From Diadema setosum (Eukaryota; Echinodermata; Echinoidea; Diadematoida; Diadematidae): a stretch of 64,000 nt of DNA. A program made the translations under genes and the position numbers. Location: contig NC_092705.1 of the NCBI RefSeq assembly GCF_964275005.1, positions 14,941,885 through 15,005,884 of the forward strand, written 5' to 3'. The notes beneath the pieces are model-generated. The model did not search any database. It was not told the origin of the DNA and worked only from the letters and a program-made list of their open reading frames with translations. Shown one piece after another: positions 99-63,033 of the stretch. Within the stretch, counting starts at the first letter, position 1; each line of letters opens with the position of its first letter.

Positions 99-3000
99 CC
101 ATGCTGGAGAGCCTTTTTGATGAAACCTTTCCGTTGGGTCAGACACAGGACGTGGCGGCCAGCATGGGCCTCCAGAGACTCCCCTGCACCACCCAGTACG
201 ATGACCGCCGCACTGCCCCGCCCGGGTCCACCCGCCAGGTAGTCAATACTCTCCTTACACACATCGCACATACCTGAAGGAGAAGCAGAGAATTAAGGGT
301 TAGCCCTTTAAACAAAACTTTGTTATAAATACCAGTTAACGTTTACATTCACAGCTTCCAATAGACATGACTGGATTAAATGTAATGTCAAACCAGAAAT
401 AAAGAGGAAACTGTTAATGAGGGAGATACATGTGTCCATGTATAGAGAAATCACCAATAGATAAGCATGATATGCATAGCATAGTATTGTTATGTAGAGA
501 GAGAAAAAAAAATAACAAAAATAGAAGATGACCTAGAGAAAAGAAAAAAAAAATGGAATATACCTGAACAGAGAGGACAAACAGAGAAAAGACAGAATAT
601 GAAAGTGGCATACCATGAATGATAAAGGAATGTAATAAAAAAAAGGCAAACAAACAAAGTTGCAGCAATATAAAATGGCAAAATTAATTTATATTCTTTC
701 CAAGACATGCATCATGTTTTAATTAGAGTTAGTTACATCAGTTTTCCTTACAATGGAACTTGTCTACTCCAGGTTGGAGTTAAGATATAAATAGTTGCAC
801 TAATGCAATATCTTCACAAAATTTGCATTCCAGTTGAAAGGCAATCAAGGATTATCAAGTATCTTTAATCAAATGAATTTTTTCTCACAAATACCACTGG
901 TCATGTTTTGGTAAAAGACAGGGATAATGACATGGGTGTTATACTGTAGTCGCAAGGTTGCTTGCCAAGGTGCACAATATCATCATGGATTTGGGATATA
1001 AGCATTTTACCTCATGGCTACCACATGAGGATAGGGCAAAAGATAAAGGTGTTTACTGATTGGAACTGAGATTTCATATCTGTGACCTTTGCCATTTGTG
1101 AATGACAACTCTTTATCACCGTACGGCTGAATTTAATACTCTACTACTGATAATCATTTCATTGATCAGGGCAGTGCTTGTGCCATATAGTCTGTGCTAT
1201 GCTTTACCATGTAAGTAGTGCACAAATGTGTGCAAGTCTAGAACTTCTTTTTTATTTTTATTTTCACAAGACTTCAGATATTGAGATGCCTTTGCCATTG
1301 AGCAACTCCGCTTTCATATATGCAAAGAGCTACAAGAGTGTAGTCTGTATAAACACTCATCACAAAATGATAAACATGGACTTAAAGGTCCAGTTTACCT
1401 TTGGAAGCAGTGACTTAAAAAATGTTCAAAATATCACATTTGTTGCATATGCGTAGGTCTGTTGCATCACAAAACATCCTACCATATAAAATTTTTGCCA
1501 TAAAGCTTAAAAGCATAAGGAGATATCAGTGTTTTTCTCATTAAACTGTAGACTGTTCAGTCTGGAAACATTTTTATTATAACTATTGTTCATATTTTGT
1601 GTATTTCAAATTTTTGCAATGGTTGTAATGTTTCTATCCCTAACTCACATTTCAGAACTATTTTAAAGCACTAATGCTGGGTTTTTGTCTCATCTGCAAA
1701 TGGTAAATTATGCCTTTAAAGGTTGCTGCTTCTATTAGGCTTGAAGGTCACTAACCAAACACACAAAACCACCTGACCACCTGCCTGCAATGTGTGTTAC
1801 TGCACCAGTGTAAGAATGAAACAAAGCTTTCCTCACCTCCAGACATAAAGAAATCCCTGACAAGAGGGTATTTGTACATGACGGACAGAGTGCATAGATG
1901 GGAGCGAATGCCGGGAAAGATGGCGCTGAAACCTGTCCCCTCTGTTGAAAAGTTGACAAAGGCGCTAATGCTCATGATTCCATGGGGGTGGAAGCCAACA
2001 ATGTAGTTATGACGAGGGTCGAGGTCTGTCGTTTTATGCAGTCTGACGGGGAAGTAGTCCGCCATCCTCTTCCAGACGCTCAAACTTCGCATGAACTGCG
2101 ATCGCCGTCCACCCCTCTGCGGTGTGTCCCTGTCATAGTAGGCCCAGCCGAAAAGGAGGAGACTGACCCAAAAATACCTGAAAGGTACAAATTTAGGTTA
2201 TGATAAAATGTTGGGATTGTACCAGGTGAGAGACAGTTACAGAGACATACAGCAGCAAAATGTGAGGTAAAAATGTTGCCTGATTCAAGGCCTACACTGT
2301 AGTCATATTCATAGCTTAAGTTACCTTACAGTTGTACTTCACTGAGCTAAGTTATCCGAGAGTGGGAAGAAATAAGCAGCAACAGATAAGTGTTACGTGC
2401 AATATCAACAGTGTCTAACTACAAATAGGACAGTAATCTGAAGAGCAGATTTTCTGTTTTCTGTTCCGGTTTCGGTATACTCAGAATTTACTGTACTCCA
2501 CCGATTTAAGCAGATAAGCTTATCAATATAATCAAACTATAAAATTCAATTCCAGGTTTTGAATAATCTAAATCATCAAATCCAATATTCACTGATGATG
2601 ATGTCAATCCATTTTCAAATTATCATCATCAAATAGAACCACTGTCACAGTTAGAGTCCAGATGTCTAGAGACCCTACTGCATTTATTATAATGAATTAG
2701 ACTATCACTTAAGAATCTCAGAAAATCTTGCTTGTTTTCCCTAGCTGCATTCATTTCAGGATACAACACCATTCTAACGTTAGATCAAGTAGATCTACTT
2801 AAGTAGATCAGGGAGGCGGAGGTGACCTCCCTCTGATCTGAGTAGATATGGCAAATCGTTAAGTAGCCCGACATCTAACGTTAACGTTACAGACAACGTA
2901 AAGTGCCAGTGGATTGTTCTTTAAGGTAAAATTATCTGATTCAGCTGACTGAAAAATAGGTCTGTACGTGGATCGGGCATAGAATTAGAATAGAACCATG

Positions 3001-33800: not shown

Positions 33801-36800
33801 TCAGTAGCTTGTCACATCTATGACAACTTGTCACTGATGACAAGTTTTCTGAAACGGGCCCCAGCAGGTGTAACTCAAAGACTATCTCCGATGTACACAA
33901 ACTCATATGATTTGAATTGTCAAACTGGTTTCAATCATACTCTCGTCCTTGCACTGGGAAGTTGAGGCTGTCTCACACTCAAGATGCACTCAACATGAAA
34001 CAAGGGACAGCCCTTGTTGGGTTTGTTGAGAACAAAAATATAACACATGCTGCCCTTTGTATCTCAGAAACTACTTCATGACATATCATAAAAATTAGAA
34101 AATAAAGAAAACAAATTCAGTTTGTGTGATATACTACAAATAGATACAATATCATATAGAATTTGATGCAGTGCATGTCTTTAACAAAGGAGGTGTCTCC
34201 CAATTAGACCTCAAGGAATTGAAAATTTGAACAAATAGGTATGAAGTGGGCAATGATTTCAGACACATAGTGCTACATCTCAAAACGCTCATTCCACTAA
34301 GAGCTACTAAGACGACTCTTACCATTAGAGTACAGGCTACAAGCAAATTATTTTCAGCAATTTGATGACTAAGTTTGGATGGAGTTTAAATGAAAGCCAA
34401 AGTGATATTTCCTACCATCGCAACATGCATCGAGTGTCTGTCTGCTTCACTGTACACTGCAACCGTCTTCACACCGAGCTTATGGGCCGTTCTGATCACA
34501 CGGCATGCAATCTCGCCACGATTGGCAATCAGTACCTTGCTGATTGCTGATGACGATGCTGTCGAGATGAACAAAGTAAATGAATTTTCAAGGTTATCAC
34601 CAAAGTCATGATGCTTGTAACACATATATTTCTTTTTCCGAGCATTGAGAATATAGGGTTTCTGGGATGAACACTGAACTAGGGCTTTCTACAGTTCAGT
34701 CGGTAGAGCACCGGGCTAGCAATCCGGAGGTCTCGGGTTCGAATCCCGATGGAATCCCATTTTCTTTGCTCCATTTTCCAATAATGCATATATTTCTTAT
34801 CAAACACAGAAAGGTTTAACTGTCAAAATCAAAGAGGACATGTGAGTTTGTTAAATACTTTTCTGACTTAATTTTTGTGACTTGAGGTGATCAATTTTTA
34901 CTGGATGACTATTACATGAAATGCTATGTTGCATAATGTTTAATATAAAATGATGTGATCACAAACACAGAAATTACAACAAATGCTTTATAGGTTACCT
35001 GCAAATAAAACAGTATGTATCTTATCAATCTATTTATCTATCTGTTTATGCATACAGCACATGCATTAATTATGTGACAGATAGCTGCGTTTACTCACCT
35101 GATCTTGATAAACATCCATTTTGCCATCCTATGTTTCTTGTTAACTGTGCAAGATTTCTGGAAAAATGAAATTAATACGTGTACACTTGTTGAATGAAGT
35201 AATGTACAGGGTGTTCATGCAATGACCCATCTTTATTAAACTGACATTTGCTCGAGATGTACATTATCACACACAGTCAAAACCCATGTCAAGTTTCAAC
35301 TTGAAGCAAACTGTCTGCCACATCTTTTCTACATCAGGAACACAAACTCTTATTGACCTTCCTACACATAAGTTTGCGAGAATGTAAAAAATGAAGTATT
35401 CTAACCAAATTTCAGGTTAATTTGAGTAGTAAATTTTTAGGTGAAAATGGCACTGCTTTCATTGTTTGTTTGTTGTTGTTTTTTCCATCTGGAAGCCCAC
35501 ATACCTCCTGCCCATGAAAGTAACATTCAGACATGCATAAATAGACACATTATTGACACATTTTTTTTTTGAATCATAACTACGTATTTTCAAAATATTT
35601 TTTATAAGTTAACCAGAAACTTTTGAAAAAAAAAAAAGAGAAACTAGAGCACTCTGCCGGAAGACCCGATCGAGCACATTGGATGATTTTTTTAGGCTAA
35701 ACTGTTGAATAATGGCAACTGGGAACCAATGTTTGCATTTTCGTTTTCACAGAATTTACCTTGTGCCACTACAGGTTATTAGTAGGAGACTTCAAATACA
35801 CTGGGTTGTGATCACTGTAATGAGGTTGGTGTAGCATACGAAATATGACATGGCATCCCATAAAAGTCCAAACACTGAGGGCGCTTTCCATAAAACTTTT
35901 TTTTACCTAGAATAACCCCCCACAAAACTCCATAGCAAGTTTGAATAATATCCGACAAGAAATGTGGCTTATAGAGCATATACAAGAAATGTGACATGGC
36001 CTCCAAGTCGGAACACTGAGGGCGCCGTCACCACAAACTGTTGTGTCCTTCATGTAGAATGACAACCCATACACCTCCTTAGCAAGTCTGAGTAAAATCC
36101 AGTGAGTAACAATCAAATTATTGCATGAAAGTGACCTTTGACCCTGTAAAACGTGGAACAGTGGGGGCAGCAGTATCAATATATAAAGGTGTCTAGATTT
36201 GACTATAATAATATGTTTACATACCAAATTTGGAAAAAAAAACGGGTTATAAGAAATCAGTCAAGATTGTACACACAAGCAGACCCTGAAATATTTACCG
36301 CTTTGTGTATAAAGACGGAACAAGCGAGGGCGCCACAACCAAAAACAAAGGGCATCTTCATTTCACTATAGTCTATAATGCATCTTTTTGCCAAATTTGA
36401 AGAAAATCTGATAAGAAATGTGGCTGATAGAGCGCACACAAGAACCGGACACAGACGCGGTGGCGCAATGAGGCCAAATCCATAATACTAGTATCCTCCG
36501 AACTCTGTTCGGGGGATACAATAATAATTTAATGCTCACAATATGAAACAATTTCGTACAAATGTGTAATTATGACAAAGATTGACAACAAATTATGATA
36601 AACATGATTTGGGAATCAAGTGCAGAAGTCAAAAAGGCGAAATCCACTTTAACATGAAAATGTGAATTCATGCATTCATTGCTGGGTTTAGTATCATCAC
36701 AGTACAAATATTACGTAACTGCAGCAGCGTACACATGTATCCTCAGTCTGCCCTAAAAGAGTGACTCTGTGCCTGTGTAGGCAGAGTCATAGACAATAGG

Positions 36801-39079: not shown

Positions 39080-41140
39080 TTCTTCTTCTGTATATTCTGC
39101 CTCCTTCAATCCTGAAGATTCTTGCAGATTTAAATGCGTGTGTGCATATCACAAGGGCACCCGAGTGTGCAGTACCTGAATGCAAGGTGCGTTATTTACA
39201 TGGTGCAAGTAAAAACCCGTTGCTCGATTTACTCCACATCTTCCGTCAGGCGATGACGGAAGACCTCCACAGACGGTGCCAGGATGACCTCTTGGGGCAG
39301 GCTGTTCCACTGCCGTACTGTGCGAGGAAAGAAGGACTGTTTGTGTTGTTCTGTCCTGGAGATGGGGACCAGATAGCCATATGGATGAACTGTTCTTGTT
39401 TGTCTTGTGATGGGGTGGATGTGGTGGTGGTCCATGTTGAAGTCTACCAGTGATTTGTGCATCTTGTACAACATGGTCAGCCTGGAGACTTCTCTTCTTT
39501 TCTGAAGTGAAGGCCAGCCAAGTTGTTTGAGCATTTCTGACACGCTTGAGGTATTATGATACCGGTTTAGCACATATGTGACCCTGCACCTCAAAACAAA
39601 CAAAAAGTCGCCAGACATGAATTTTTAGTTAAGACCATATTCTGAAAGAGCAGACTTTAAGCTTTAAAATGATGTATAACTCAAATCAAATGGATTCTCC
39701 TAACCTATCTTAATATTGGAAAGAAAGCACAAACTCAGGAAAAGTGTGAACTGAGAAAAGAGGCTCTGAAGTACAGTGTCTATTCAAGCGCTTAATCTTT
39801 GCCAAACCGTGCTGGCTGTGCGATGAATAGGACAAAAAAAAAAGGAAGTAAACCACCAGAGTAATAACAATGAAGGGATTATCAGATTAAACTGAAATTA
39901 AGCATGCCCCATAAACACATTCTGTCCATAATTAATGCCGACTTTCAAAGCAGTAGCACTATTCTTTCAAAAGTTATTAGAGTTGAAAGTGAAGAGTGCG
40001 GACAAGGTTTTTCAGAAATGAAAAAGGGATTCTAAAGACACACCTAATCACACTATTCTACCAAAAATGTTCGAGATAAACTGCTAAAGAAAACACACTT
40101 TCCTGCCCGTTTTATGATACCAAATTTTAGCATAATGTAAAAGAAGACCCGCTCTTTCAGAAAATATGAAAAAGTCAAGTTCGGCTAGGTTGACCCATTT
40201 CACTTATTTGCAGTCCTCACGCAAAATCAGTGTGTGCGACTTTATGTTCGTTTTGAGGTGCACGGTCACATATCGTGCAGCGCGTCTCTGGATCATTTCC
40301 AGCTGTTGTATGCATCCAGTTGTGTAGGGATCCCAAACTGAACATCCATATTCAACAAGAGGATGCACAAGTGCCTGGTACGCTGTCGTCTTGAGTTGGG
40401 TTGAGTGGATGCGTAGATTACGTCGGAGGAAAGCCAGGGTGTTATTTGCCCTCTTGCAAATGTTAGAGATGTGTTGGTTCCATTTGAGGTTGGTTTCAAT
40501 TGTGATGCCCAAGTATTTGGCAGATGTGACAGTGTCCAGGACTATGCCATTCAGAGTGTATTGATGATGATGTCTAGTCCTCTTTCTGGTGACTGTTATT
40601 GCGTGGCATTTACGGGGATTGAGTTCCATCAGCCAGTCACTTGACCATTTACTGAGTTTATCTAGGTCTTCTTGTAGGAGCCTGGCATCTTCATCTGACT
40701 GGATGGTCATATACATGATGGTATCGTCTGCAAATAGCCTTACTGACGTGGACATGTCTGTGGGCAGGTCATTGATATAGAAGAGGAAGAGACAGGGTCC
40801 AAGGACTGATCCTTGTGGGACTCCAGATTCAACTTCCACTTCAGATGAGGTAGTTCCATCTAAGACGACTCGCTGTCTTCTGTTTGTGAGGAAGTTTGTT
40901 ATCCATCTGATGTTATGGCCTCTTACTCCGTAGTACTGCAACTTGTGAAGTAGTCTTTTGTGTCCAACTTTGTCGAAGGCCCTGCTGAAGTCTGTGATGA
41001 TGATATCTGTTTGCTTGTTCTCCTCCATGTTGTTTATCAGGTCACTGATGAAACTGATGAGCTGGAGTTCGCAAGACTTCTTTGCCCTGAAGCCATGTTG
41101 GAGTGGGTAGAGGATGTTGTTGTTGTTTGCATGGCTCATG
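39080..41140 (-). mobile_element. jockey/CR1-like LINE, 5'-truncated, split by a MITE
   Basis: The minus strand encodes reverse transcriptase: LQHGFRAKKSCELQL, TDFSRAFDKVGHKRLL, GVPQGSVLGPCLF and the catalytic FADD box (RLFADDTIMYM), then the C-terminal RAARYV...LNRYHNTSSVSEMLKQLGW, ending with PRTVRQWNSLPQE. The endonuclease and early RT are missing. The open frame joins a chance palindrome (TTTGCATG-GCTCATGCAAA) near 41130, so the 5' end is truncated there. The 3' end shows an (AAG)n-like tail near 39070-39090. The frame is open except for the 694-bp MITE at 39577-40270, so the copy is fairly young. CR1 and jockey clades are not separable by eye. Confidence 0.85.
39577..40270. mobile_element. 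TA-flanked MITE inserted in the LINE
   Basis: TA lies at 39575-39576 and 40271-40272. The inverted ends read TGTGACCCTGCACCTCAAAA and TGTGACCGTGCACCTCAAAA and stay alike through AAAGTCGC, about 35 bp. It splits the LINE between ARYV and LNRYHN codons. TA duplication suggests a Tc1/mariner-type transposase; none is encoded. Confidence 0.85.
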
Positions 41141-43502
41141 CAAACAACAACAAACAACAAACAACATTTGAAAACCAGGTTATGATAATCTGTTGTAACG
41201 TCCACATTTCTTCATCTTTTATCTTCTAAATTCATCCTCAAGCAGCAAAGGAGTAGAAGTTTTCAAATATCATATTAGTTTTGACGAAATTAGTTTGCAA
41301 AAGCTGAAAACGAAACTTTGAAAATAAAATTTACTCTACATTGGCCATTCGCGCGATGTCTCCATTGCACGGAAGTCGCCATTTTGGGAAATGTTCTGCT
41401 AAAACCTTTGAACTTTGACGTCATACCACTTACTGTAGGGGTACCCTTCGAATGTGTTATGAAATGCATCGTGTACCGTACTCGAAACATTACGCTTTTG
41501 AATGATACTACTCACTGCATAACTGTCTACATTTTCGCAATGCAAATCGAAAGATTGTTTTGATGAGACTTTTACACCCATTTTTACATCAATAATTCTG
41601 TTGAAAATCGTCCAAGATCTATAATATTTAGAAAGTGGAAAAAGGTATGGAAAAGTAGTATGTTATGAAAGTCTTAAGTTTTCTGAGCATGTTGCACCTT
41701 GTTGCTGTGCGTGTTACTGGCGCGCAGTGCGCAGTCCGATCATGAAGTGTTCGGGCCGCCATATCCCCGGGCGCTATAACCAGGAACGTGTCAGTGCGGT
41801 TAGGGCCGCCGGTGTGGGTTTTGTATCGTCAACATGATGGGCAGATTATGATTTGTCTTCATTAACAAATATGAGTTTGTATTTTGAATAGGTTTTGAAA
41901 CCTACTCATATAAGGTCTATGTCATACAATGATCATGGCTAATCTTATTGATATTTTGTTATATGTTTATTAATTGTCTTTTTTTTTGGGCTTTGGTGGG
42001 GCATTGCTCACAAAACTGGGGTCTGTGGTTTTGTTTTGCTTTATTTTGTTTGTTATTTCTTTTAATTTCTTTTTTTTTTGGGGGGGGGGCGATGCGGTGG
42101 GAAGGCTGGTAATAACCTCCCTTCATGCATTTTTCACACAAGTGTATTTCCTTTTTGACATGCTTTTTGTGTCCATTTATGTAGCTGTAAATAGAAAGAG
42201 TCCAAGTTACAAATAATACAATACACTGGAAAACAATAGCTATACTCCTCATTCCACTATCAAACTTTACAGAATGTATAATGGTGATAAAACATGCATG
42301 TATCTTTGTCAGATTAAAAGGTATATATCCTATTTTAAACATCCATTGTTTCTTTAATACCAAATAGAGCTCTGCAACTGGAAAACTTCAACAAGATATC
42401 ACTTAACAAGTTCACAAGAAACATCGTTAAACTAATACAACTCTTCACTAAGTTCAGAGAAAGATGTAATTATCTTGGCCTATATATAGCTTATTTGAAC
42501 ACCATTCTTACTTTTGTGACAAGCTTTCCAGTGATACCAAATAAATATTGTTAGATGTAGCTGCAACTGGAAAATGTTTATGAACATTCAAGTGTTTTGG
42601 GAAATTGTCGCTACTCGCCGACAAGAAAAAAAAAAGAAGCTGTACCGATGATAAAGCTTGCATAAGTCAAATTTAAGGGTATTAAGCTGATTTAAACACC
42701 AGTATGTTTCTTTTTTGACGAGCTTTCCAATGATATCACATTTTTGTAGAGCTCTGCAACAGGAAAAAGTCTGTCAAAGACTCAATACATTGGACAATAG
42801 TCATAACTCACTGTTTCACTTCTAAAATTTACAGAATGAATTTCACTACAAAAAATATTGAAACCTGCATATCTCGGTCAAATTTAAAGATATAATAATA
42901 AAGCTGATTTAAACACCATTGTGTTTCTTTCTTTTTTTTTTTGACAAGCTTTCTGTTGATACCAAATTTATTAGGCTGCTGCAAAGAAATCTATTTTCCG
43001 TCAAACTCCCTACAAGTGGTTTTCTTTTGATGGTGAAAGGCTGCATATGAAAATAATCTATCTTGATTTGTGATCTTACCACCATCTGCAACTGCAGCAG
43101 CCGGGAATTAAATTAGTAGTAATATTGACATATTGCCCATCAGTAGTTACAGTTTACGATTATTACCAATAGCAGCATGCAGCAGCAGTAACCACATAAT
43201 GGTGAACAAAAGTGGAAAAGGTTTAGATCTATTTTCTTCAAGCTTCAAGTTCTTATGCAGAGTCTAGTCATCATACTGCTCATCAGATGGTGGCTCTTGT
43301 GTAAATCATGATATTTGTTCATTTTGTGCTTAGCTATAACTGCCTAAAAATCCAGTATTAATTTTCAACTCATGAATATCATTGAATTTGACATATACAA
43401 AAATATTTTATCCAAGAGATGATCGCAACAAAGATCCTAAGTAGGCTCTTTGATCTCGATTAGAAAATGCCATTGATTTCTTACAATTTCTATTTTGTCT
43501 AG
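41141..43502. other. Upstream region of AKAP14
   Basis: 41690-41830 is GC-richer (CGCGCAGTGCGC, GGGCCGCCATATCCCCGGGC) and is the best promoter/first-exon candidate. A CTAG acceptor after a T-rich stretch ends at 43502, implying an upstream non-coding exon. The rest is repeat-rich. Confidence 0.4.
42230..43000. repeat. Degenerate tandem array upstream of AKAP14
   Basis: Four diverged units of about 190-220 bp share GATTTAAACACCA, TGTTTCTTT, GACAAGCTTTCC-GTGATACCAAAT and GCTCTGCAACTGGAAAA. Units centre near 42330, 42520, 42720 and 42940. Confidence 0.5.
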
Positions 43503-43518
43503 GACAAGTCACTAAGGT

Positions 43519-45817
<2,299 letters not shown>

Positions 45818-51402: not shown

Positions 51403-54400
51403 CTAAACTGTGCCCTTTTGGGCTAGGGTCCGCTCCAGTTTTTGCATGTTGGCCCTAGTGACCTCTGCCTTGGGGTCAAGGGTCAGGGACCTCTGGTAGC
51501 ACTGGAGAGCTTCCTCAAGCTTACCCCATCGGTGGTACAGCACACCAAGATTACCGTGGTAACTAGCTGCATTCGGATTGAATCTGATCGCTTTCTGGAA
51601 CATTTTTTCTGCTTCCTGTCAAAGAGAGAGAGAGAGAAAAAAAAAAAATTATGGGTTATTTCTCCTAATCACTACTATCAATGATATCTCTTTCACGCAA
51701 AACTTGTATAAAAAGCAAACTTTGATATTACCCTTAACATACGTCAGTAACAAGTCAAGACAATGTGCACTTTTTTCAAAAAGTAACATTTTGTGAAATT
51801 CTCTTTATATTTTCCTTATACTTTTATACTTGTGACATCATCAGCTGTAGTAGTCTTCTCATCCAACAGTGTCTGAGCAGACACTTCAAAAATTCATAAC
51901 TTTTCAACGGATTGTGCGATTTTCCTTAAACTCTCACTGATGTGTTCTACTAATACTGCTGCATTCACTCAATCCACACGTATATGAAGGTGGACTTGTC
52001 CTTTAAGTGCCTCGGCACATAAAGGGTTAATTAAGAGAACTGATGGAGGAGTACCTCAAACTGTTCCAGTTTCCCTAGGACGTTCCCCATGGAGTAGAAA
52101 ATGGAGGGCTCCTCTGGCAAGAACTTCAGAGCTTCCTGTCCCACAGCTACAGCCGTGTTATAGTGACCTTTAGTTTGGCAAAACATTTCAGAATGTTGAA
52201 ATTCACATTTCTCTCTTCAATTAGCAAAGTTTCGTTTATTTCTGTCTCATTCTGTGCAGGTTTGATGAATTTAAGTTCATCTCATATTTTTCCAACATTA
52301 GATATGCAGTGAAATTCAGAGCTACATTGCCAATTTGAGAATGACATGACAACTTTCATAAAGTGAATGGAATCAAACTTTTTGGTAGCTGCATACAGAG
52401 CTAATTGAGAACCAGTGTACAGTGAATAAGTAGGAAAGAGGAATTTTGAATTGCTTTCATGAATAGGAAAGGGCATTTCTGTCGTCACTTTAAACAATGA
52501 TGCAATGAAACAGTCTAGACCTCTCATGTGGAAAGGCAAGAAAATGTGAGTTTTGTCTGCCATTGTCTATCAGTGAAATGTAAAGTGACGAAAACAAAAG
52601 TAATATATTCAGTGTCAGAGGGTCAGCATTGATAGTTTACGTTAAAAAAGTAACTGCAGTATTTAGGATCAGAGAAGGGGGGGGGGGGCTGAGAAGAAGG
52701 AAGGATGAAGGCAAGAATACATGAAAAACTACAAAAAGACACAATATACCTTCTCTAAATATACCTATAATTGATACCCAACATTCATGTCATACAACTG
52801 TTTGGCACACATATAATATCTTACACAGAAACTTTACCAGGTATTGAAAGTGACTTTGATATCAGGAAGTCAACTGATTAGAGCAGTAATAAGCAGTGTT
52901 CTTTGAAATAGAGCTAAAAGATGGTGAAACTACAAGACAGAATGAAATGTAACATTTGTTCATGAAATAGTAATTGATCTTGATTACTATGCAACTCAGG
53001 CAAGCTAATGATGTCATCACCTCACCATTCTCCAACTAGTTTGATTTGTGCATACAAAATTGTTCTTTTTGTAGACAATTCAACAAATGTGATGAATTTT
53101 GCAGAGGTCAAAGTTCATTTCCAGACTGAAATACAGTTGAACCTCTATTATCCGGCCTCCCTTTATCCGGATCTCTCTATTATCCGGAAGCAATCTCGCC
53201 GTGATTTTTTTAATCTTTTTTTTTAATAATTACGGGAGGAAACACACATGAATTACACATACTTGATACATTTCTTAATGATTATTTAGGTAAATCATCC
53301 CAAGAATTTATAAAAGAAAATGATTTCCGCTTGCAAACACGAACCTCTATTTTGGGGTCTGTTACTGAGTGTAACAATGAAAAGGTCGCAGTATACACAT
53401 TACTACATGTGGTACTACAATGGGCTACATCAGTACATGTGTATGTGTATGTACCATAGAGCTCTATTATACGGTATGTACATGTATAAAGCATTGAGTC
53501 TCCCGTATCCGGCCAAATCCCTTATCCGGATGAGCCCCGGTCCCGACTTGTCCGGATACGAGAGGTTCAACTGTACAGTGTATGAATACCGTGTGTTAAT
53601 CACACAATCAAGCCAAGAACTGTCAAACGTCAAAACTTATTTTACTTTCAAAATATATTTTACCTAAATGCACTTTTGACTGCAGGTTCATTCTACTCTA
53701 GCAGTACACTACTGAAGGGCACTACAATGTCTTTGACTCAAATATTCATTTGCGTTCATTGTTTCATGCAGTGTTTTTATGTCATGTGTATTTCTGCAGG
53801 GCATCTTACCCAAATCATCATACAAGGTTATGGTGTTGAACCATGCCCTCGTGTGGTCAGATTTCTGTGAGGTCGCCCTCTCCCACGCCATCACGGCCCG
53901 CTCCCACTTCCTTGTTTGCATATACTGTTGTCATGACAACAAAATACTGAACATCTTCTCTACTCTGAGAGTAGAGCTTTATTTTTCAGATATAGTGGCA
54001 GGCAATCTTCATTTGGACTGTTTGTTACTCATTGTACTTGCATGAGTCTAGCATGCATCTAGGTTTAAAGACTGATGTTTCATTCGGGTGTGAAATGGTC
54101 TCACTCCATGCTATCAATTTGCAGGGATAGAACCTGGATATACTGGGTTGGTATAAGAAGCAATGATCAGTATGGAACAGGTTTAGTTTCTCAACACACA
54201 ACAAATCTTGATGGAGTCCTCACACTGTTATTAGCATAAAAAGGCTGGGTTGTCATGTTACAGTCAAGAGTCATGGTATAGCTGTGACAAAAGAGGGAGC
54301 TATGTAAAAGTCCTCATGAAAGTCTGTCAAACGGGGCTATAGATTAATGTAAACAGTATTTCCTAACTGCAAATCATGAACTGAAGAAACCCAACAATAC

Positions 54401-57400
54401 ATTGCAAATCTTGATGATGCAGGAAGGTAAATGTGTCATTCAAGCAGTGAATGACTTTCAGGAACATTCTCCCTTCTTGACCCAATTTAACCCTTCTTGT
54501 GTTTGAGTGCCATTGCTGCCGATTGACAAAGAAAATCCCCATTGTACACACTGTCCAAATTCCCTCTCACAGAAAGGGGTAAGGGACTGCAGGTGGAACT
54601 ACTTACAAAGGTCTATGTCTTAGAGTGCTATATTCCACGCAATTGAGCATTTTAAAACATGATTTTTAATTATTATTTTTTTTTTACTTAAAATGTATAC
54701 ATATCTGAGCAGCAAATTTGTCAGACTTGATGGAAGAGATAAAACAGATATACTGCTGGGAAAACTATGAGAGTACTACCCGATATTACATGTGGTTGTG
54801 GGGTTGTGGTGGTGGTGGGGAGGAGGGTAACCATTCATTAAGAATTCAGGTTACAAAGTTGAAAGCTGACAGATGAAAATTATGTGGGTCGCCCTTTACT
54901 CATACAGGGATGCCACTTAGAATGAAACAGAGTGCCCGAAATGTATCTACATGAAGCTACTTTGTACACAAAAGGACCTGAACATAGATACAGCCAGGAC
55001 CCGATTTCAGGCTTTTGCCTGAAAACTTGCATGCCTGTTCATAGATAATTTGAATGTACTTTGTCTTGATTCTCAACTAGCAATGGAATAGCACTGTTCT
55101 GGGTAGAGACACACGCAACCATTTAGTGAAGTTTGTGGGTACAGTTCTACATGTATACTTCATGAAAATGTGCTTTTCACGTTCACATGGACTTTAAGCA
55201 GTTAAAGCAGGTTTAACCAGCAATATGTGCATCATGCAATGAAGTGAATAGTGCAATAAGTCATGCCATGCACAAAAACAATGCAATTTCATCATTAGGA
55301 AGCATCAAGACAAAATAACTAGACATTTGTGACCGGCGCCAACGGTTTCAGGCAAAAGTCGGAAATTTTGAAAATTCATTTTTTCATTGAATCACATTAC
55401 CCATTTCCTAAGCTTTACATTGATATAAAACACTTGTATTCTCCGGTACTGTGAGTGGTCATATAAAGCGAAATATAACACACTTTTTGATTTGTTAGCC
55501 TGACCAAATTGCGAAAAACGGGCTTTGAAGATTCCCCTCATGCTCGAAGACAATGCCAGGCGGCGATGCGAGGTGAGAATCACCCATCTGTGCAATGATG
55601 CCAATCGAGATTAAGCTCCGCCTCTAGCAACCACAGCGGCTTCTGATTGGCTCACTGAGAGAGTCAAATTTCCCGGGCACCTTCCTCGGAACTCGGCGTA
55701 TGGAACCGAATGCACAATGCGTTTCGCTCGGGTTTGTTTACCAGTACGTCTTTCAAGATAGCGGATACGATAATTACAAGCTGCTGATTACGTGTGCATG
55801 GTCACGTATTACTCAATGGCATCCACACGCTATGCCTGTGTGTATACGTCACAGGAGCGGGTAGCACATTCGTTTCCACATCTTTACAAATCACGTTTTC
55901 ATAGTGCTTGATTTGTCTTGTAAATTTGATCATTGGGACCCTTTCGAAGGCAGAAGGATGAAAAGGGTCATGCTTTCTGTAGTTTCCTTTTTTTTTTTAA
56001 GCTGTACATGTGTTGCGTTGTGCGGTAAACAAGCAAGCAAGCAAAAACAAACAAACAAACAAACAAACACGACTTTACCTAGTTTGGTGCAATTTTGACG
56101 TTTACGACAGTGTATTATTTGAATACTGGTCATTTATGACCACTCCTTTTCTCTCTTCTGCTGTCTTTTTGAGTCAACCTGATGTCATAATTACTACACG
56201 CACAATATCAACAAGTCAGTTTCCGATCGTACGTTGCACGATTTGTGTGGCAATTTGCCACTCTGATACGCTTAAATCATGTTCCCTATCGTATACATTT
56301 TCACATTAAGTTAGTGCTGCCTAGTGTTGCTGTTAAACTTTTGTTTCACTAATTCCGTTGTCGAACATTGCGGTAAAAAAGCTCGGATAGAAAGCCAAAC
56401 GAAGAGCTTAAAGACCGAGCGTACTGGTATCTATTGTAGCAACAACAATGGAGCATGCATGTGTAATTAGCGTGGACAAAATATTTCCAACACGCTGCGA
56501 GGCGTATCTCCGAAAGCCGAACTATGTAAATGCGTGCGACGCACTATCCAACCGCGCGCGAGATGCCGCGCCGTAGCAACACTAGTCTGGGCATAGTGGC
56601 GCGGCGTTCGAAAGAAGATCGAAACTGACGAGTGCGCTCCAACATAGGGAGTTTAAAATTCCATTTTCGGTAGGAAAAACTTAGTGTTATGCTGTGAAAT
56701 TTAGTGTATATGTAGAAAACATATCAAAGATTCAAAATCTGCAAAAACCCAAAATCGACAAAAATAATGGTCAAAATGTTTGTACCCGGCCTAGGAGGGA
56801 ATTTGCTTTTGCGACTTTTGCCTGAAACCGTTGTCGCGGGTCACATTTTGTTACGCTCAAACTACCACTAAGACATCACTCTACTATTAATAGTGGTATC
56901 CATTCGCTTTTTTACAAACAGTAAATATCACAACTAAAATGTTAACTGGTTGCAACTACAAACACAGCTTTACGAATGCTGAATAAATTTTACAAACAAT
57001 TAAAGTAATTATCACAATCAAAATTTTACTTGGTTTCTACTGAAATACCTGCCAGTCTAGAATGTTATTGTGTTATAAACTAGTTGTCACAGTGAATAGT
57101 CTTGAAAAGCATAATTCAAAATCAAGTCAAGATTGATATAGTGATATTTTCATAAACTGTTGAATTTTACACTTCCCATCCAAATTCCATTTTTACTCCT
57201 ACACTATTTAGAAAATAAAAATGAATGCATCTTAAATGGAGTCAAGTTATAAACTTTAACTCAAATTAACAACAAAAAAACAGCTGACACATTAGAAATA
57301 CAATGTGTGCCATTCTTTTTTCTTCCAGCAAAGCAAAATCATCACAACAAAACGGCAAGATGTTCATAGAGAGAGTGTGACCAACTCTTTCTCACCTAGA

Positions 57401-60400
57401 TTGTCAAGCAGTAGCAGTGCATTATTCCATGCTTCAGCGTGAGTGTTTAGCAGGGAGGTGGCATTAAGCCAAGCCGACAGGGCCTGGTCTGTCTGTCCTA
57501 CCACTAGGTACTGTTTGTAAGGGTGAGTCAAGACAAGGGTTAGTCTTTCGACACTATGTTATTCAGAGCTAGGCTATACTTCGCTATACAAGAAATTAGT
57601 TTCTAATTCATAGAAGTTTGGGACTTGTCAGTGTCAGTCTTAGTGAACAAGGGATCATTATGTAAAATATACATGTTTTTGTTTTTATTTGAATATTTAT
57701 TCTTCTTTTTTTTTTGGGGGGGGGATGTGTTTGTTTGGTTTCTAACCAGAAAAACCAGATAAAAGATGTATCAATTGACAGGATAAGAAAAAGAACTTTA
57801 TTTTCTGTAGAACTTGATTATGAGACAAGTGAGTTACAAAGGTGACAGAAAAAAAAATCTGTCACTTTTGGGGGCATACAATTCTACTTTTCATATTGCA
57901 TAGTGCTTTTATTTGAAAAAAAAAAATTGATGGTTACTACTAGAACTGAAACATATTTCTGCCTTTTGGCATGCATCTGATTTTGCGGACTGTTGCCAGT
58001 AACTTAAAATTGTTTCAAGCATTTTAACTAAACGAAACAGCAAAGTACATTCTTTCTAACTGATTAATTTATGCAAAGTAAATCATGGGATGGTTTTGTA
58101 AGCGTAAATCAGTTTTGGTAGTACGGTGCAAGAAGCAACTGTCTGTTAGAAGCGTTCAATAAGAGTTAGAAATGAAGCAATAAACATGGCAAAAATATCT
58201 TCATTCACAGTACACAAAATAATTGATAATTAGAACACTGAAATAACACACATTTGTAGACATTACCAAATTAAAGCATATCAAATCAATAGGAATAGCA
58301 AATCGTTGCTGGGGCGACAAGACCTCGTAACTACAAAATGTCAAATGTACAAGAGAGCCAAGAAATATGGCGGCCTAAGCACTATACCTTATGGGATAGC
58401 TTTTCCTTTGACATGCCGTGGGGACTTCATTTTTTGGGTAAGGCAATTAGGATTTGGACAGGACATCACTTAACTGTTCATCTCACCATTAATCCAAAAA
58501 GTAATTTTCACCAAAATTTGAGATACAAGGTCTTGTCACCCTAGCAACGAAATATGATCTAAAAATGAGAAATGAAATACTTTTCTGCATTTAAGTATTC
58601 TTACAAAGATATTTGTCTATCACATTTCTCACAAGCCAACATTTGTGTTCTTTCATAACAGAGCATTAAGGCATAAAGAAACATAAAGATGCAAATATCA
58701 TAATTTCAGCTTCCACTCAATTTTTTAAAGTGTTTGTGTGCATGGGAGTGGGGGGGGGGGGGAATCCTCAATAAACCACCTATTTCTGTTACCCTGGTAA
58801 CAGCTGTTTCAGTCCCAAAGACGTGACTTCTCCACCCACTACACAAAAGTCATGGCTACATTCCAGGCAGTACATTCTCACTTTATTTAGTCAGTCATTT
58901 ATTGATATCAGCAATCAAATATCACTACCATAAGATAAATACAGTACACAAATATGATTTTTTAACCAATTGCGGTAAACTGTACAATTATGCAGAAAAT
59001 ATATTCACTCTGATAAACCCTGTTGTCTCTACTTAGAATGAAAAAAAGCAAAAACAAAAAGAAGGGGGAAGTGGCTACCACTATATAGATCAAGCCTGAA
59101 TGTGTGTCTTGCAGTATTGTAAAGCACATGTAAAATAGCTTCGACAGAAATATTCAAAGATTTTTGTAAAGCTATAGAATATGTGGATGAAAACAAAAGA
59201 TGAAATGTCATTTTCTGCCTAACTCACCAGGTTGCCAAGGTTAAAGTAGCAGTCTGGGTAGTGTTTCCTGTGACGTAGAGCTGTGAGGTAGCTCTCTTCA
59301 GCCTGGGCGTACTTTTGCAGAGCAACCTGAACAATGCCGAGATTCATCCAGGCAGCAGCAAACTTGGGTCTAGGGATCAATCATTTTTGTCACAGTTCAG
59401 TGTAGTTCTATTGTGGCAGGAAATACATTCTTAACAAATGCTATATCATTCACATCTTGAAAAACAATATTGCTACCAAAAAGCAATCTCCAGACAGCTA
59501 CACAAGAATTAACTTCCATAAACTGACAAATAAAACTGAATGATTCATTTGAGTAGTCTAATTGATAGATCTGTGATACAGTCACAGCAGTCAACATATC
59601 ATACACTACTTTAGAAGTATGAAACCAATCTAAGCAGTGAAGCTGTTCCTCACAATAAAGTTAAGTATGTGCTACTTTGAATAAGAAGTACGGTAATAAT
59701 TACGAGATATACAACGAAATAAGGATGGTGCGAAGTCTGAAAACGGATATGAATTATAGTAGGCAACATCATGTGCCCCAGAAATTGTTACAGCGCACTA
59801 TGACTAGTTCAGTTCAAAACACAACAGGAAGATGTTTCACACAAAACCAAACAAACAAACAAAAACAGTTCTATTTCAAGACACTTTCAGATTGCCAAAC
59901 TTTGCCGGGGGATAACTGAGACCTTTGATTTTGTTTGTTTGTTTGTTTTTTCAAACCAATTGCTGAATTATATATCTAGTGCCTAATTTAATTTTTCAGT
60001 TTCAGGGTGACATTGTGAGATCAAATATGATAGTAAATGATTACTGAATAATGTACCAGCTGTTATTTTCATGTACAGATATTTTCATGAGATGTTGTTT
60101 TCGTGAGTGAACACAGAGACTATTATAAGTGCACTACTATCCTATCGTGTGGTGACGTTTTGGCGCATTAAATTCAAGGTCCAACAGTGATTCGCGAAAT
60201 TAGCGAAAATTAAACTCTCGCGAAAATAACAGCTTATACAGTATAAAGTGGAAATGAGAGTGTAGATACCGGACAGTCACTGCCTGGGAGATTAAAGACT
60301 CTGCCTCCTCCGTCTGGTTCATCTCCCGGAGGAGGTTGCCCAAGTTGTTTAGGGCCTGGTCATATTCTGGATACAACCTGCAATCGAGATGTTCATTCAT

Positions 60401-63033
60401 GGCAAAATCTATTGTTAGAGACTTTGTGGGTCACATTTGAACCAAGCCTCTAGCACGTTTTTTGATCAGTCCTACATCTAACCAAATCTAAATATATGAG
60501 AAGTTGTTTGCATGTGTACCAAAATTCAAGCTAAGAGGGCAAAACTTTGCTGGCATGAATAAAGTGTTGACCATACAATCGTAGCTCTGAATTTGATACA
60601 CTCTTGAGTATCTTTACATCAACTTAAAAGCAAAATGAATTTAATTCTCTCCCCCCCCCCCCCCCATCTAAAAACAATGAGAGATATCATCAAAATTTAA
60701 CCAAAAAAAAAAAAAATGATTCCTAGTAGCTTATATCAGACTTCCTAAATTGCATGGAATTTGACAATGAAGTATGCAGCAGCCAAGTTAAGTGTGTTTC
60801 ACACTGTAAGCGCTAAGATACAGTGCATATACTAGTAGTGCATTTAGAAATCCATCACTACTCTCATTATATCTAAACTGGATGAAAGACAGGGAAGCAT
60901 TAAAATAATGATATCGTAGTTGTAGCACAATAGACAAAACTCCACTGGTACAATTTGTAGTTTTCTATGACGTGTGTCTGTGGAGGGTTATCAGTCTGTC
61001 TGGTTTAGTGAGTCTTTTAAAGACATACTTGAGAGCTGTTTTGGCTCAGTGGACAAGATACCAGACTATCAATCATGAGGTCACTGGTTCAAGTCCCCTG
61101 GCTGCAGTGGTCATGAGCCTAGATAAGACTGGTCATCCTCATTGCCTAGTCCCTCAAGGAGGACTTAGAGCCAATGGTCCTGTGGTTGCTTTACAAAGCA
61201 TTGCAAGCATTCACTGCTTTCCTAGCAATTCAAATTCAACATCTGCATTCCCTTGTACTCAGTGTGTCTGACAACATATCTGAAACATCATTTTTATTGC
61301 CATTTCTCATACCTTAATGCTTCCCTATAGGCAGAAATGGCTTCCAGTGGTCGACCCAGGTCAGTTGCACTTTTTCCTATGTTGTAGTGAACCTGAAAAG
61401 AAGAAGTGACTATGAAAGCCTTTTTGGACACATGATGAAGCAAAACTTGCATGCTTTTACTACCCCAAAAACATGCATTGTCAGAAAATTGCATGCATTT
61501 TCCTTGAGCAAGACAGCTGCACTCAAAGTACAGTCAGTATTCAGGATTCAGGATAAATAGCATTACAGCACATAACACATGATCCAATTTGCATCATCCT
61601 CCCTAGAAACTTTTGTGTTACAGTGACAAGGGCATACAACCCTAATATTCTATAACTGTCTTAACTGAGAGAATACATCTGAGAGAATACATCTTGAAAA
61701 GAATGAGTTTTATAAAATTGAATGTTGAGAGCACACAAAAGTGGATCTTCATTTGAGAAAAAATTAACAAAACAGCTGCCTGTTCTACCGGCATATGAGG
61801 GATCACTCTTTCCTAACATATTTTGTTAACAAGTTAAGAGTTGCTTTAATAATCAGACCAGCTACCTTTACTAATTTCATGACAGACTTAGGAATGGTCA
61901 TTAAAGATACCAGGAATTTTGTTTTCTTAGGTAAGGATCATAACCAGATTTCACTTGGACCTTGCCATCCTCCTAGCCACTCACCTTGGCATTTAAAGGG
62001 CAAACCCTGAGCCCTGATTGGTACAGGCTGTCCTCCGTCAGCCATTCTTTGTTTCTATGGATACAGCGGGTCATGTGACAAGCTATCACCACCATCAGCA
62101 TACCTTGAACAAACTGAATTTTGAACAAGAACAATCTGTCATTAACTTGGTGTGGATTAAAATACCCAAACATGTACATCCAGAAAAAAAGAAAAAAAAA
62201 ACAACAACAACAACAAAAACAAGTTCTAAATTGAAAACAAAGGACTAAGTTTCTTATTAGATGCCAAAGTCTCTGTATTTTGGAATGTAAAACACAGTTT
62301 CATGTAAAGACCTGTGTGGCTTGTTACATTCCTGGGGAAATTGTATCTATTCAAAATTAGGGCATATTTGTATAATGCTTGGAGCAAATCATGGAATGAT
62401 ACCAAGAAGCCACACACTTTGGAGCACATGCTGTTTTCTATCTACTACTACCAGTAGGCATGAATCATCAGTCAAATCACAAAACTCCACTATACCTTAG
62501 ATTTTGATACAGACTTCTAGCTGCTCTTACCAAAGGTAATAGCATTCCTCATCCTTTATAAGAAAACATGACTTTAAACTACAATCACGGCATTGGCTGG
62601 TTGTTATTCAGGGGAAATGGAAAAAAAAAATGCCTTTATTGGGGTATATAAAGAGGGTTCCGATCTACAATGTGAATGAAACAATGTGGTTCTGCTGTTG
62701 CATTTGCAGTACATGTACAGTACCCTCTGTTGTTAGTCCGTGGTGGCATTCAGAGCAATATACATGTTTTCAGATTTACCCATTTCCTTGGATGTAAATA
62801 AAATTACGGGTATATCAAGAACACATGGGCATAGAGTTCCTACATCACTCACTCTTTTCACACTGTTGGGCCTTGCAATGCACAGCTGCCTCATTCCCAT
62901 GACAACCAGCAAGCAGAAACCCAGACTGGGAAGATAGAGGGCTCTCTCCGCCACCACGAAGCCAACACGAAAGAGGAGATTGGAGGCTGGGATGAATGGT
63001 ATGATGAGAGCGGACATAGCCATGGTAAGAGCT
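51403..63033 (-). CDS. TMTC4: Transmembrane O-mannosyltransferase TMTC4, C-terminal part (5' end beyond window)
   Basis: TMTC proteins are ER membrane enzymes that O-mannosylate cadherins. Exons in gene order: 62853-63033, 61985-62113, 61313-61392, 60270-60377, 59228-59369, then either 57396-57510 or 53810-53924, then 52055-52167 and 51403-51615. All introns are GT-AG and phases close to 359 aa plus TAG. The upper edge of the first listed exon is uncertain by 2 bp. Visible parts: the last membrane segments and family word GFVVAERALYLPS, then LRVCPLNAKVHYNIGKSATD, which starts the TPR array, then DQALNNLGNLLRE, AAWMNLGIVQVALQKYAQAE, YPDCYFNLGNL and NPNAASYHGNLGVLYHRWG. Several segments match human TMTC4 closely, more than TMTC1-3. 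The alternative exon pair is treated separately. Confidence 0.95.
51725..52002. mobile_element. Half copy of the TTAA-flanked foldback in a TMTC4 intron
   Basis: It ends TATGAAGGTGGACTTGTCCT with TTAA at 52003-52006, like 13586-14149. Only the right half survives. It lies 50 bp before the TMTC4 exon at 52055. Confidence 0.7.
53134..53573. mobile_element. pogo-like MITE (CTATTATCCGGCC type)
   Basis: TA at 53132-53133 and 53574-53575. The ends CAGTTGAACCTCTATTATCC and, inverted, CAGTTGAACCTCTCGTATCC match. Subterminal TTATCCGGAT words lie near both ends. No ORF of transposase size. Confidence 0.85.
53810..53924 (-). CDS. TMTC4: TMTC4 alternative exon, version 2
   Basis: 115 bp with an ACAG acceptor and GTAAGA donor, phase 0 in and phase 1 out, identical in size and phase to the exon at 57396-57510. 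It encodes YMQTRKWERAVMAWERATS and continues with HTRAWFNTITLYDDL. The TPR framework residues (Y1, A10, A13, W14, A17-T18-S19, H24, A27, W28, N30, L34, D36, L38) are kept while the rest differs. Joining both versions shifts the frame, so one transcript can use only one. Confidence 0.85.
55328..56845. mobile_element. 1.5-kb inverted-repeat element between the two alternative TMTC4 exons
   Basis: Left TGTGACCGGCGCCAACGGTT and right, inverted, TGTGACCCGCGACAACGGTT, with TTCAGGCAAAAGTCG on both sides. The termini share TGTGACC and AAAGTCG with the MITE at 39577-40270. Two interior stretches (about 55540-55720 and 56440-56650) are CpG-rich, with GGCGCGGCG and GCCGCGCCGTAG. No transposase is recognised. 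Confidence 0.7.
57396..57510 (-). CDS. TMTC4: TMTC4 alternative exon, version 1 (human-like)
   Basis: 115 bp, entered in phase 0 after an ACAG acceptor, left in phase 1 before GTGAGA. It encodes YLVVGQTDQALSAWLNATS and continues with HAEAWNNALLLLDNL. This is the second helix of one TPR and the first of the next. It is the version closer to human TMTC4 (AWRNAT, AWNNMIILLDN). It shares length, phases and 14 of 38 residues with the exon at 53810-53924. Confidence 0.9.
57540..58303. other. TMTC4 intron, no feature recognised
   Basis: AT-rich sequence with a short G-run near 57715. No exon-like ORF. Confidence 0.3.
58304..58549. mobile_element. MITE with CGTTGCTGGGGCGACAAGACC ends, TMTC4 intron
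   Basis: Left CGTTGCTGGGGCGACAAGAC, right inverse CGTTGCTAGGGTGACAAGAC, about 33 bp of inverted ends. The same family occurs in AKAP14 intron 2 (45113-45597). Confidence 0.75.
60055..60243. mobile_element. Diverged TTCGCGAA-type MITE in a TMTC4 intron
   Basis: It ends ATAACAGCTTATACAGTATA and begins ACCAGCTGTTATTTTCATGT, an inverted pair. Inside are TTCGCGAAATTAGCGAAAAT and CTCTCGCGAAAAT. It lies directly before the TMTC4 exon at 60270. Confidence 0.5.
61033..61255 (+). mobile_element. tRNA-derived SINE, second family, TMTC4 intron
   Basis: A box TGGCTCAGTGG at 61042-61052 and B box GGTTCAAGTCC at 61086-61096 both fit RNA polymerase III consensus and spacing. The tail differs from the SINE at 34683. 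It lies antisense to TMTC4. Confidence 0.6.

What the first reader, a model, noticed from the sequence alone, without database searches (positions are those of the whole stretch)
53810..57510. Mutually exclusive exon pair in TMTC4 that would swap part of its TPR surface
Seen: two minus-strand exons, 57396-57510 and 53810-53924, are both exactly 115 bp, both enter in phase 0 and leave in phase 1, both have clean splice sites, and both encode a version of the same TPR segment (14 of 38 residues identical, framework residues kept). 115 is not a multiple of 3, so using both or neither breaks the downstream frame. Known: TMTC1-4 are ER O-mannosyltransferases for cadherins, with a C-terminal TPR array. 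Inference: splicing chooses between two TPR faces and so could change substrate or partner choice. I know of no described alternative exon pair at this place in TMTC4, but could not search.
Basis: partly seen in the sequence, partly recalled or inferred. Interest (0 to 1): 0.87.

Follow-up and report, generated by a model that had tools for sequence, protein, structure and literature searches.

The report
Either-or exon pair in urchin TMTC4
In a sea urchin, the gene for TMTC4, an enzyme of a family that puts mannose on cell-adhesion proteins, carries two alternative versions of one exon that keep the protein readable only if used one at a time; both versions are found in other sea urchins, so splicing probably lets the animal choose between two surfaces of the enzyme's likely substrate-holding arm.

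Summary
Two minus-strand 115-bp exons, v1 (57396-57510) and v2 (53810-53924), lie in tandem in the only TMTC4 locus found in a 912.7-Mb genome, most likely Diadema setosum. Phases match; including both or neither gives a premature stop 163 or 95 nt upstream of the last junction. Diadema setosum and Lytechinus pictus models use v1, the Strongylocentrotus purpuratus model v2, a Lytechinus variegatus model holds both. S. purpuratus and L. pictus are 92% identical in the rest of the TPR region but 12 of 38 across the exon. Of 6358 pairs of fetched homologues, four show such a break, all echinoderm; two involve starfish, so starfish probably have such a pair too. Predicted models place the exon at helix B of TPR4 and helix A of TPR5, mid-array. 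v2 lacks an N-glycosylation sequon present in 118 of 120 near homologues, though many distant ones lack it as well. Mutually exclusive splicing is likely; a change of substrate or partner is inferred only. No RNA data were available, and none of the four sea urchin models bears an isoform label. The kind is known (tandem-duplicated exon substitution); my searches listed none in TMTC4.

The parts
57396..57510 (-). v1: first version of the alternative exon (115 bp, phase 0 in, phase 1 out)
   Evidence: used in the D. setosum model P0003
53810..53924 (-). v2: second version of the alternative exon (115 bp, phase 0 in, phase 1 out)
   Evidence: its counterpart is used in the S. purpuratus model P0004
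59228..59369 (-). shared upstream exon (142 bp), ends in phase 0 inside helix A of TPR4
52055..52167 (-). shared downstream exon (113 bp), enters in phase 1
51403..51615 (-). last coding exon with stop codon
60270..60377 (-). TMTC4 TPR exon
61313..61392 (-). TMTC4 TPR exon
61985..62113 (-). TMTC4 exon, last membrane helix into first TPR
   Evidence: start moved by 3 bp to agree with P0003
62853..63031 (-). TMTC4 exon, membrane part; the first exon that I placed inside the window
57457..57465 (-). N-x-T sequon codons (NAT) in v1; v2 has RAT at this place
53925..57395 (-). intron between v1 and v2 (3471 bp): too long for steric exclusion
55328..56845 (.). stretch bounded by 38-bp inverted arms, 92% complementary, inside the v1-v2 intron (probably an inserted element; my reading)

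Best explanation
TMTC4 of this sea urchin has a pair of tandem-duplicated, mutually exclusive exons. Shown from sequence: the two are homologous, of one length and phase, with GT-AG splice sites, and each alone keeps the frame while both or neither gives a stop codon placed where nonsense-mediated decay normally acts. Exclusivity therefore needs no special structure: wrong products are non-productive or decayed RNA, possibly helped by splicing factors (inferred). Shown by comparison: both versions are kept as separate clades in sea urchins. Supported by prediction: each version builds the end of TPR4 helix A, all of TPR4 helix B and TPR5 helix A, in the middle of the lumenal TPR arm (seven repeats by my count of the predicted helices), without changing the fold. 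Framework residues, including the Asn at position 6 of TPR5 helix A, are the same; the variable ones include positions 2, 9 and 13 of TPR5 helix A, which face the groove in TPR proteins generally (recalled), and TPR4 helix B, where v1 carries an N-glycosylation sequon and v2 does not. Inferred: cells choose between two versions of the arm thought to recruit cadherin domains, and so alter which substrate or partner TMTC4 takes, or how tightly. The confidence given is for the either-or exon pair being real and used; the change of substrate or partner alone I would put near 0.4.
For: Exons, phases and stops. Homology above chance. One locus. v2 counterpart used alone in S. purpuratus (23 of 38 identical to window v2), v1 alone in L. 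pictus and D. setosum, both present in the L. variegatus model (33 and 21 of 38). Break confined to the exon: S. purpuratus against L. pictus 204/222 outside, 12/38 inside, nominal P 4e-20. v1 clade support 100/99, v2 clade 98/96. In a neutral simulation an open v2 with at least 21 of 38 residues kept occurs in 0.27% of runs at 0.5 substitutions per site and in 0 of 4000 at 0.75 or more. Identical helix borders after an offset of 61, exon block pLDDT 95-97. Eleven positions the same in all six urchin exons, eight fixed differences. TPR arm lumenal (PMC7801869, passages) and proposed to recruit cadherin EC domains (PMC11292533, passages).
Against: No RNA read was seen. None of the four sea urchin model names carries an isoform label, so the annotation pipelines gave no sign there of a second isoform; the protein database merges sequences at 90%, so one could still be hidden. 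The L. variegatus model joins v1 and v2 through 29 residues without counterpart. All sequences of relatives are gene predictions. v2 evolves faster than v1 (21-23 of 38 against 32-33). Three sequences per version only. The neutral simulation allows chance survival at small distances (49% of runs at 0.1, 29% at 0.2, 12% at 0.3), and the real neutral distance was not measured.
Confidence: 0.8

Rival explanations
1. v2 is a dead or dying duplicate exon that is no longer spliced in Diadema.
For: The D. setosum model uses v1 and its name shows no isoform number; v2 is less conserved than v1; no RNA evidence on hand.
Against: Open frame, GT-AG sites and the TPR framework positions kept in Diadema; 21-23 of 38 residues shared with relatives; used alone in the S. 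purpuratus model; neutral survival unlikely for distances of 0.5 or more substitutions per site.
Confidence: 0.12
2. Both exons are used together, giving a longer TPR array, as the L. variegatus model has it.
For: The L. variegatus model P0005 contains v1, 29 filler residues and v2.
Against: Direct joining shifts the frame; the filler has no counterpart in the other models; the sister species L. pictus has v1 alone; 29 extra residues would break the TPR register (inference).
Confidence: 0.04
3. The choice mainly controls the amount of TMTC4: including both or neither sends the mRNA to decay, and the protein difference is of little account.
For: Both wrong products have stops 163 and 95 nt upstream of the last junction.
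Against: Does not explain why v2 itself is held as a TPR-compatible stretch distinct from v1 with eight fixed differences.
Confidence: 0.12
4. The starfish difference is not a second pair but fast change of this exon in the Patiria line alone.
For: Only one version is seen per starfish species here; the tree does not reject the three starfish exons as one clade (p-AU 0.287).
Against: Patiria and Acanthaster are of one order and 85% identical elsewhere in the TPR part, yet 16 of 38 in the exon, while the more distant Asterias shares 27 of 38 with Acanthaster; the models are labelled isoform X1 and X2, which says that isoforms exist but not where they differ.
Confidence: 0.2

Closest known systems
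Tandem duplicated exon substitutions / mutually exclusive exons (236 human events in PMC9741552; 1,399 human MXEs in PMC5740500)
   Same: Neighbouring homologous exons, isoforms identical except for one homologous stretch, mostly ancient (PMC9741552, passages); lengths not divisible by three in 377 (60%) of human clusters (PMC5740500, passages).
   Different: 'TMTC' and 'tetratricopeptide' do not occur in the main text of either paper; here the pair lies in a glycosyltransferase of echinoderms; no RNA proof yet.
TMTC4 of vertebrates and amphioxus
   Same: Same gene, same exon stretch, same sequon as v1 in the listed homologues.
   Different: No pair of the fetched vertebrate or amphioxus homologues that met the thresholds shows an exon-confined break, so there is no sign of a second version there in this sample.
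O-GlcNAc transferase (OGT) TPR arm
   Same: Nearest natural solved relative by sequence and fold, after engineered TPR proteins; the Asn at position 6 of helix A aligns; in OGT such Asn residues hold the substrate backbone (recalled).
   Different: Cytosolic/nuclear enzyme with another catalytic domain (recalled); no TMTC name is among the 47 solved chains or the 50 rows.
Dscam exon clusters
   Same: Splicing picks one of several homologous exons to set a recognition surface (recalled; PMC1397879 seen in a search listing with the start of its abstract).
   Different: Two exons only; exclusion here can be by frame and decay; no docking or selector sequences shown.

Membership tests
Mutually exclusive (tandem duplicated) exons | Neighbouring exons in one gene | tested here: met
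   v1 and v2 lie between the same two shared exons of the only TMTC4 locus found
Mutually exclusive (tandem duplicated) exons | Exons homologous to each other | tested here: met
   E 5.1e-14 with a profile lacking v2; 14 of 38 identical, 0 of 200000 shuffles
Mutually exclusive (tandem duplicated) exons | Same phase and compatible length with splice sites | tested here: met
   115 bp each, phase 0 to 1, AG/GT
Mutually exclusive (tandem duplicated) exons | Joint use or joint skipping not productive | tested here: met
   premature stops in both cases
Mutually exclusive (tandem duplicated) exons | Each version present alone in transcripts of the gene | tested here: inconclusive
   gene models only: v1 alone in two species, v2 alone in one, both with filler in one
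Mutually exclusive (tandem duplicated) exons | Junction reads bridging the other exon | not testable with these tools
   no RNA reads on hand
TMTC4 (GT105 O-mannosyltransferase) | Closest relatives are TMTC4 | tested here: met
   the window's v1 isoform (358 residues) is contained in P0003, named TMTC4-like of D. setosum; most named rows among the 120 listed of 1044 hits are TMTC4 or mannosyltransferase
TMTC4 (GT105 O-mannosyltransferase) | DD motif in the first lumenal loop and C-terminal TPR array | tested here: met
   P0003 reads FVFDD near its start (motif as in PMC7801869); TPR array in the models and by Pfam. The window itself holds only the C-terminal part.
TMTC4 (GT105 O-mannosyltransferase) | Mannose transfer to cadherin domains | not tested
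   enzyme assay needed; TMTC4's own substrates are described as predicted (PMC13123603, passages)

The most novel reading that the evidence does not exclude
An echinoderm-wide splicing switch, older than the split of starfish from sea urchins, re-aims an ER O-mannosyltransferase: one isoform has a glycosylated TPR arm of the usual deuterostome kind and serves the ancestral cadherin substrates, the other lacks the N-glycan, presents a different groove and serves other cadherins or partners, so that alternative splicing of the enzyme rewrites the O-mannose pattern of adhesion molecules by tissue or stage.
Probability: 0.18. Interest if true: 0.82.

Novelty: new member of a known kind. Interest (0 to 1): 0.6.

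Why it matters
What gives each TMTC enzyme its own cadherin targets is open; the TPR arm is a proposed answer that still awaits structural and binding tests (PMC11292533 and PMC13123603, passages). Here evolution has kept two versions of one 38-residue stretch of that arm in the same gene, differing at eight fixed positions and at an N-glycosylation sequon. Swapping the two in an otherwise unchanged enzyme is a ready-made experiment on what the arm recognises. It is also an old case of either-or exons in a glycosyltransferase outside vertebrates and insects.

Tried and rejected
Rejected: steric exclusion (v1-v2 intron is 3471 bp) and U12/U2 incompatibility (all introns around the pair are GT-AG, none with a U12-like donor, judged by eye). 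Competing RNA pairing: 27 inverted pairs of 16 bp or more in 52000-59400; the longest look like ends of inserted elements (my reading), and without relatives' DNA nothing could be shown. Rbfox-like TGCATG: 6 in the region against 1.4 expected from base composition, but the whole minus strand of the window is also rich (38 against 13.5), so no clear signal. A separate v2 gene: no, one DNA match and one high-identity TMTC4 locus. A second duplicated exon in the gene: none seen when each exon peptide was compared with the window at E up to 0.01, but that comparison does not see v1 against v2 either, so it is a weak control. Common origin of the urchin and starfish pairs: not settled; v2 with the Asterias/Acanthaster exon as one clade is 5.0 log units worse, p-AU 0.126, v1 with Patiria 0.2 worse, p-AU 0.289, while an urchin-only duplication (v1+v2 as one clade) has p-AU 0.040, a post-hoc test on 38 columns. 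A narrow search with the S. purpuratus v2 exon alone returned only itself (1 hit among 2 candidates); a search for shorter relatives showed no further named echinoderm in the 120 rows listed of 1213. dN/dS was not possible for want of DNA of relatives.

Result against the sequon idea: the 118 of 120 is for the best-listed, mostly vertebrate homologues. Of 15 more distant or selected homologues printed, 10 lack N-x-S/T at this place, among them several insects. The sequon is thus not universal, and its lack in v2 is one loss among several. On recheck I lowered the novel case from 0.20 to 0.18 for this, and the best explanation from 0.83 to 0.80 because none of the four sea urchin models bears an isoform label; the dead-exon rival went from 0.10 to 0.12.

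Dropped before counts: the P0005 model was left out because it holds both exons, as were pairs with under 36 exon or 180 other aligned columns or under 60% identity outside the exon; only the 120 listed rows of each search were available, not all hits. In one search P0005 was counted by its first (v1) match and the window's two exon peptides did not match the pattern.
Full report
WHAT IS THERE. The window is a piece (contig 22) of a genome of 912,680,840 bases in 102 contigs. Eight minus-strand exons between 63031 and 51403, v1 among them, splice to a 358-residue stretch contained in P0003, protein O-mannosyl-transferase TMTC4-like of the sea urchin Diadema setosum, so the window is most likely that species; v2 is the ninth exon. 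v1 or v2 alone keeps the frame to the same stop; v1+v2 and neither give stops 163 and 95 nt upstream of the last exon junction, beyond the roughly 50-55 nt at which nonsense-mediated decay usually acts (recalled).

MORE THAN CHANCE. A profile made without any v2 sequence finds v2 at E 5.1e-14 among 1667 open stretches of the window; the next hit outside the two exons is at E 0.68. v1 and v2 share 14 of 38 residues (0 of 200000 shuffles) and 56 of 115 bases, most at codon position 2. The v2 DNA occurs once in the genome search. The TPR region of TMTC4, with v2, gave nine matches: six on contig 22 (78-95% identical) and three on contigs 11 and 13 that are 31-37% identical and presumably other TPR genes.

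CONSERVATION. One search returned 1044 homologues, of which 120 were listed. Sea urchin models: D. setosum v1; L. pictus v1 (32 of 38 identical to window v1); S. purpuratus v2 (23 of 38 identical to window v2); L. variegatus holds v1 (33 of 38), a 29-residue filler and v2 (21 of 38). The filler looks like a gene-prediction artefact forced by the frame (inference); the rest of that model agrees with L. pictus in 754 of 803 positions. None of the four names carries an isoform label. Trees of the 38 residues put the v1 exons together (100/99) and the v2 exons together (98/96), so the duplication is older than the split of Diadema from Lytechinus and Strongylocentrotus. A neutral simulation, 4000 runs a step, leaves v2 open with at least 21 of 38 residues kept in 49% of runs at 0.1 substitutions per site, 29% at 0.2, 11.7% at 0.3, 0.27% at 0.5 and none at 0.75 or more; the real neutral distance was not measured here, but the split is more than a hundred million years old (recalled).

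THE EXON-SWAP SIGN. When two species' models use different versions, identity drops in the exon alone. S. purpuratus against L. pictus: 204/222 in the rest of the TPR part, 12/38 in the exon (nominal binomial P 4e-20), and the worst 38-column window starts one column before the exon. I then asked this of the pairs among 235 fetched homologues (P0005 left out; many are vertebrates): of 6358 pairs that met the thresholds, 4 show a break at P under 1e-4, all echinoderm: S. purpuratus/L. pictus, Acanthaster/Patiria, Asterias/Patiria, Diadema/S. purpuratus. The pairs are not independent and the P values are nominal. The starfish case is telling: Acanthaster and Patiria are of one order and 85% identical outside, yet 16 of 38 inside, whereas Asterias, of another order, shares 27 of 38 with Acanthaster and 16 of 38 with Patiria. 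This fits two exons in starfish, of which different automatic models show one each; the models are labelled isoform X1 or X2. It is an inference, since no starfish genome was at hand. Whether the starfish and urchin pairs go back to one duplication is undecided.

ANATOMY. AlphaFold2 models of the S. purpuratus (v2) and D. setosum (v1) proteins have mean pLDDT 86.6 and 80.7, with the blocks over the exon at 95-97. In both, the exon makes the last residues of TPR4 helix A, all of TPR4 helix B and all of TPR5 helix A, with helix borders identical after an offset of 61 residues, in the middle of seven repeats (my count from the helix list). Helix A lines the groove of a TPR superhelix (recalled). 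Positions the same in all six urchin exons are TPR4 11, 20, 24, 27, 34 and TPR5 3, 4, 6, 10, 12, 14; fixed differences are TPR4 17, 25, 31, 33 and TPR5 2, 9, 11, 13. TPR5 position 6 is Asn in every version shown and aligns with the consensus TPR Asn and with OGT; in OGT such residues hold the substrate backbone (recalled). So the general grip would be kept while neighbours change: E to R at position 2, L to T at 9, N to D at 13. The Asterias/Acanthaster exon also has T at position 9. v1 carries N-A-T at TPR4 26-28; an N-x-S/T sequon is there in 118 of 120 listed homologues, the exceptions being the v2-type S. purpuratus model and Acanthaster; P0005 was counted by its v1. Against reading too much into it, 10 of the 15 mostly more distant homologues printed lack it. 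As the TPR part is in the ER lumen (PMC7801869, passages), the switch may add or remove an N-glycan; that it is occupied is not shown.

MECHANISM. Shown: frame rule, homology, conservation, one-at-a-time use in three of four sea urchin models. Supported by prediction: isostructural swap. Inferred: both-in and both-out RNAs are decayed; splicing factors bias the choice; the arm's substrate or partner preference changes. The TPR arm is proposed to recruit cadherin EC domains before transfer (PMC11292533, passages), and TMTC4's own targets are described as predicted (PMC13123603, passages). Steric and U12 mechanisms do not apply; no docking structure could be shown.

KNOWN OR NOT. Either-or homologous exons are well known (PMC9741552 and PMC5740500, passages; 'TMTC' does not occur in their main texts; supplements could not be read). 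Ten paper searches showed, among the rows listed (15 of 20 and 12 of 34, all found in the others), no title or abstract start that reports such a pair in TMTC4, and no paper held TMTC4 together with sea urchin. The library is open-access only. Verdict: a real and old pair, unreported as far as these searches go, of a known kind, with an unusually direct use for testing what a TMTC arm recognises; RNA proof is the missing piece.

Noticed in passing
55328-56845: A stretch of about 1.5 kb bounded by 38-bp inverted arms (92% complementary) sits in the intron between v1 and v2, probably a DNA transposon or MITE.
   Followed up: no
53132-53575: A second short stretch with inverted ends (24 bp, 92% complementary) lies in the intron downstream of v2.
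   Followed up: no
1754-2197 (-): Open stretch matching diacylglycerol acyltransferase (DAGAT, E 2.5e-40): part of a neighbouring gene.
   Followed up: partly
40207-41211 (-): 335-residue open stretch that reads like a non-LTR reverse transcriptase with FADD (recognised from memory, not searched).
   Followed up: no
34687-34754 (+): tRNA match, 45.1 bits against a gathering score of 29.
   Followed up: no
45194-45406: About 70 copies of CAA.
   Followed up: no
P0013 and P0014 (crinoids Anneissia and Antedon): The exon stretch is identical in 38 of 38 residues between the two crinoids although the rest of the TPR part is 80% identical: unusually strong conservation, unexplained.
   Followed up: no
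P0016 (unnamed assembly source): The exon of this unnamed homologue groups next to the urchin v2 exons (84/87) although it keeps the sequon; origin unknown, could be chance on 38 columns.
   Followed up: no
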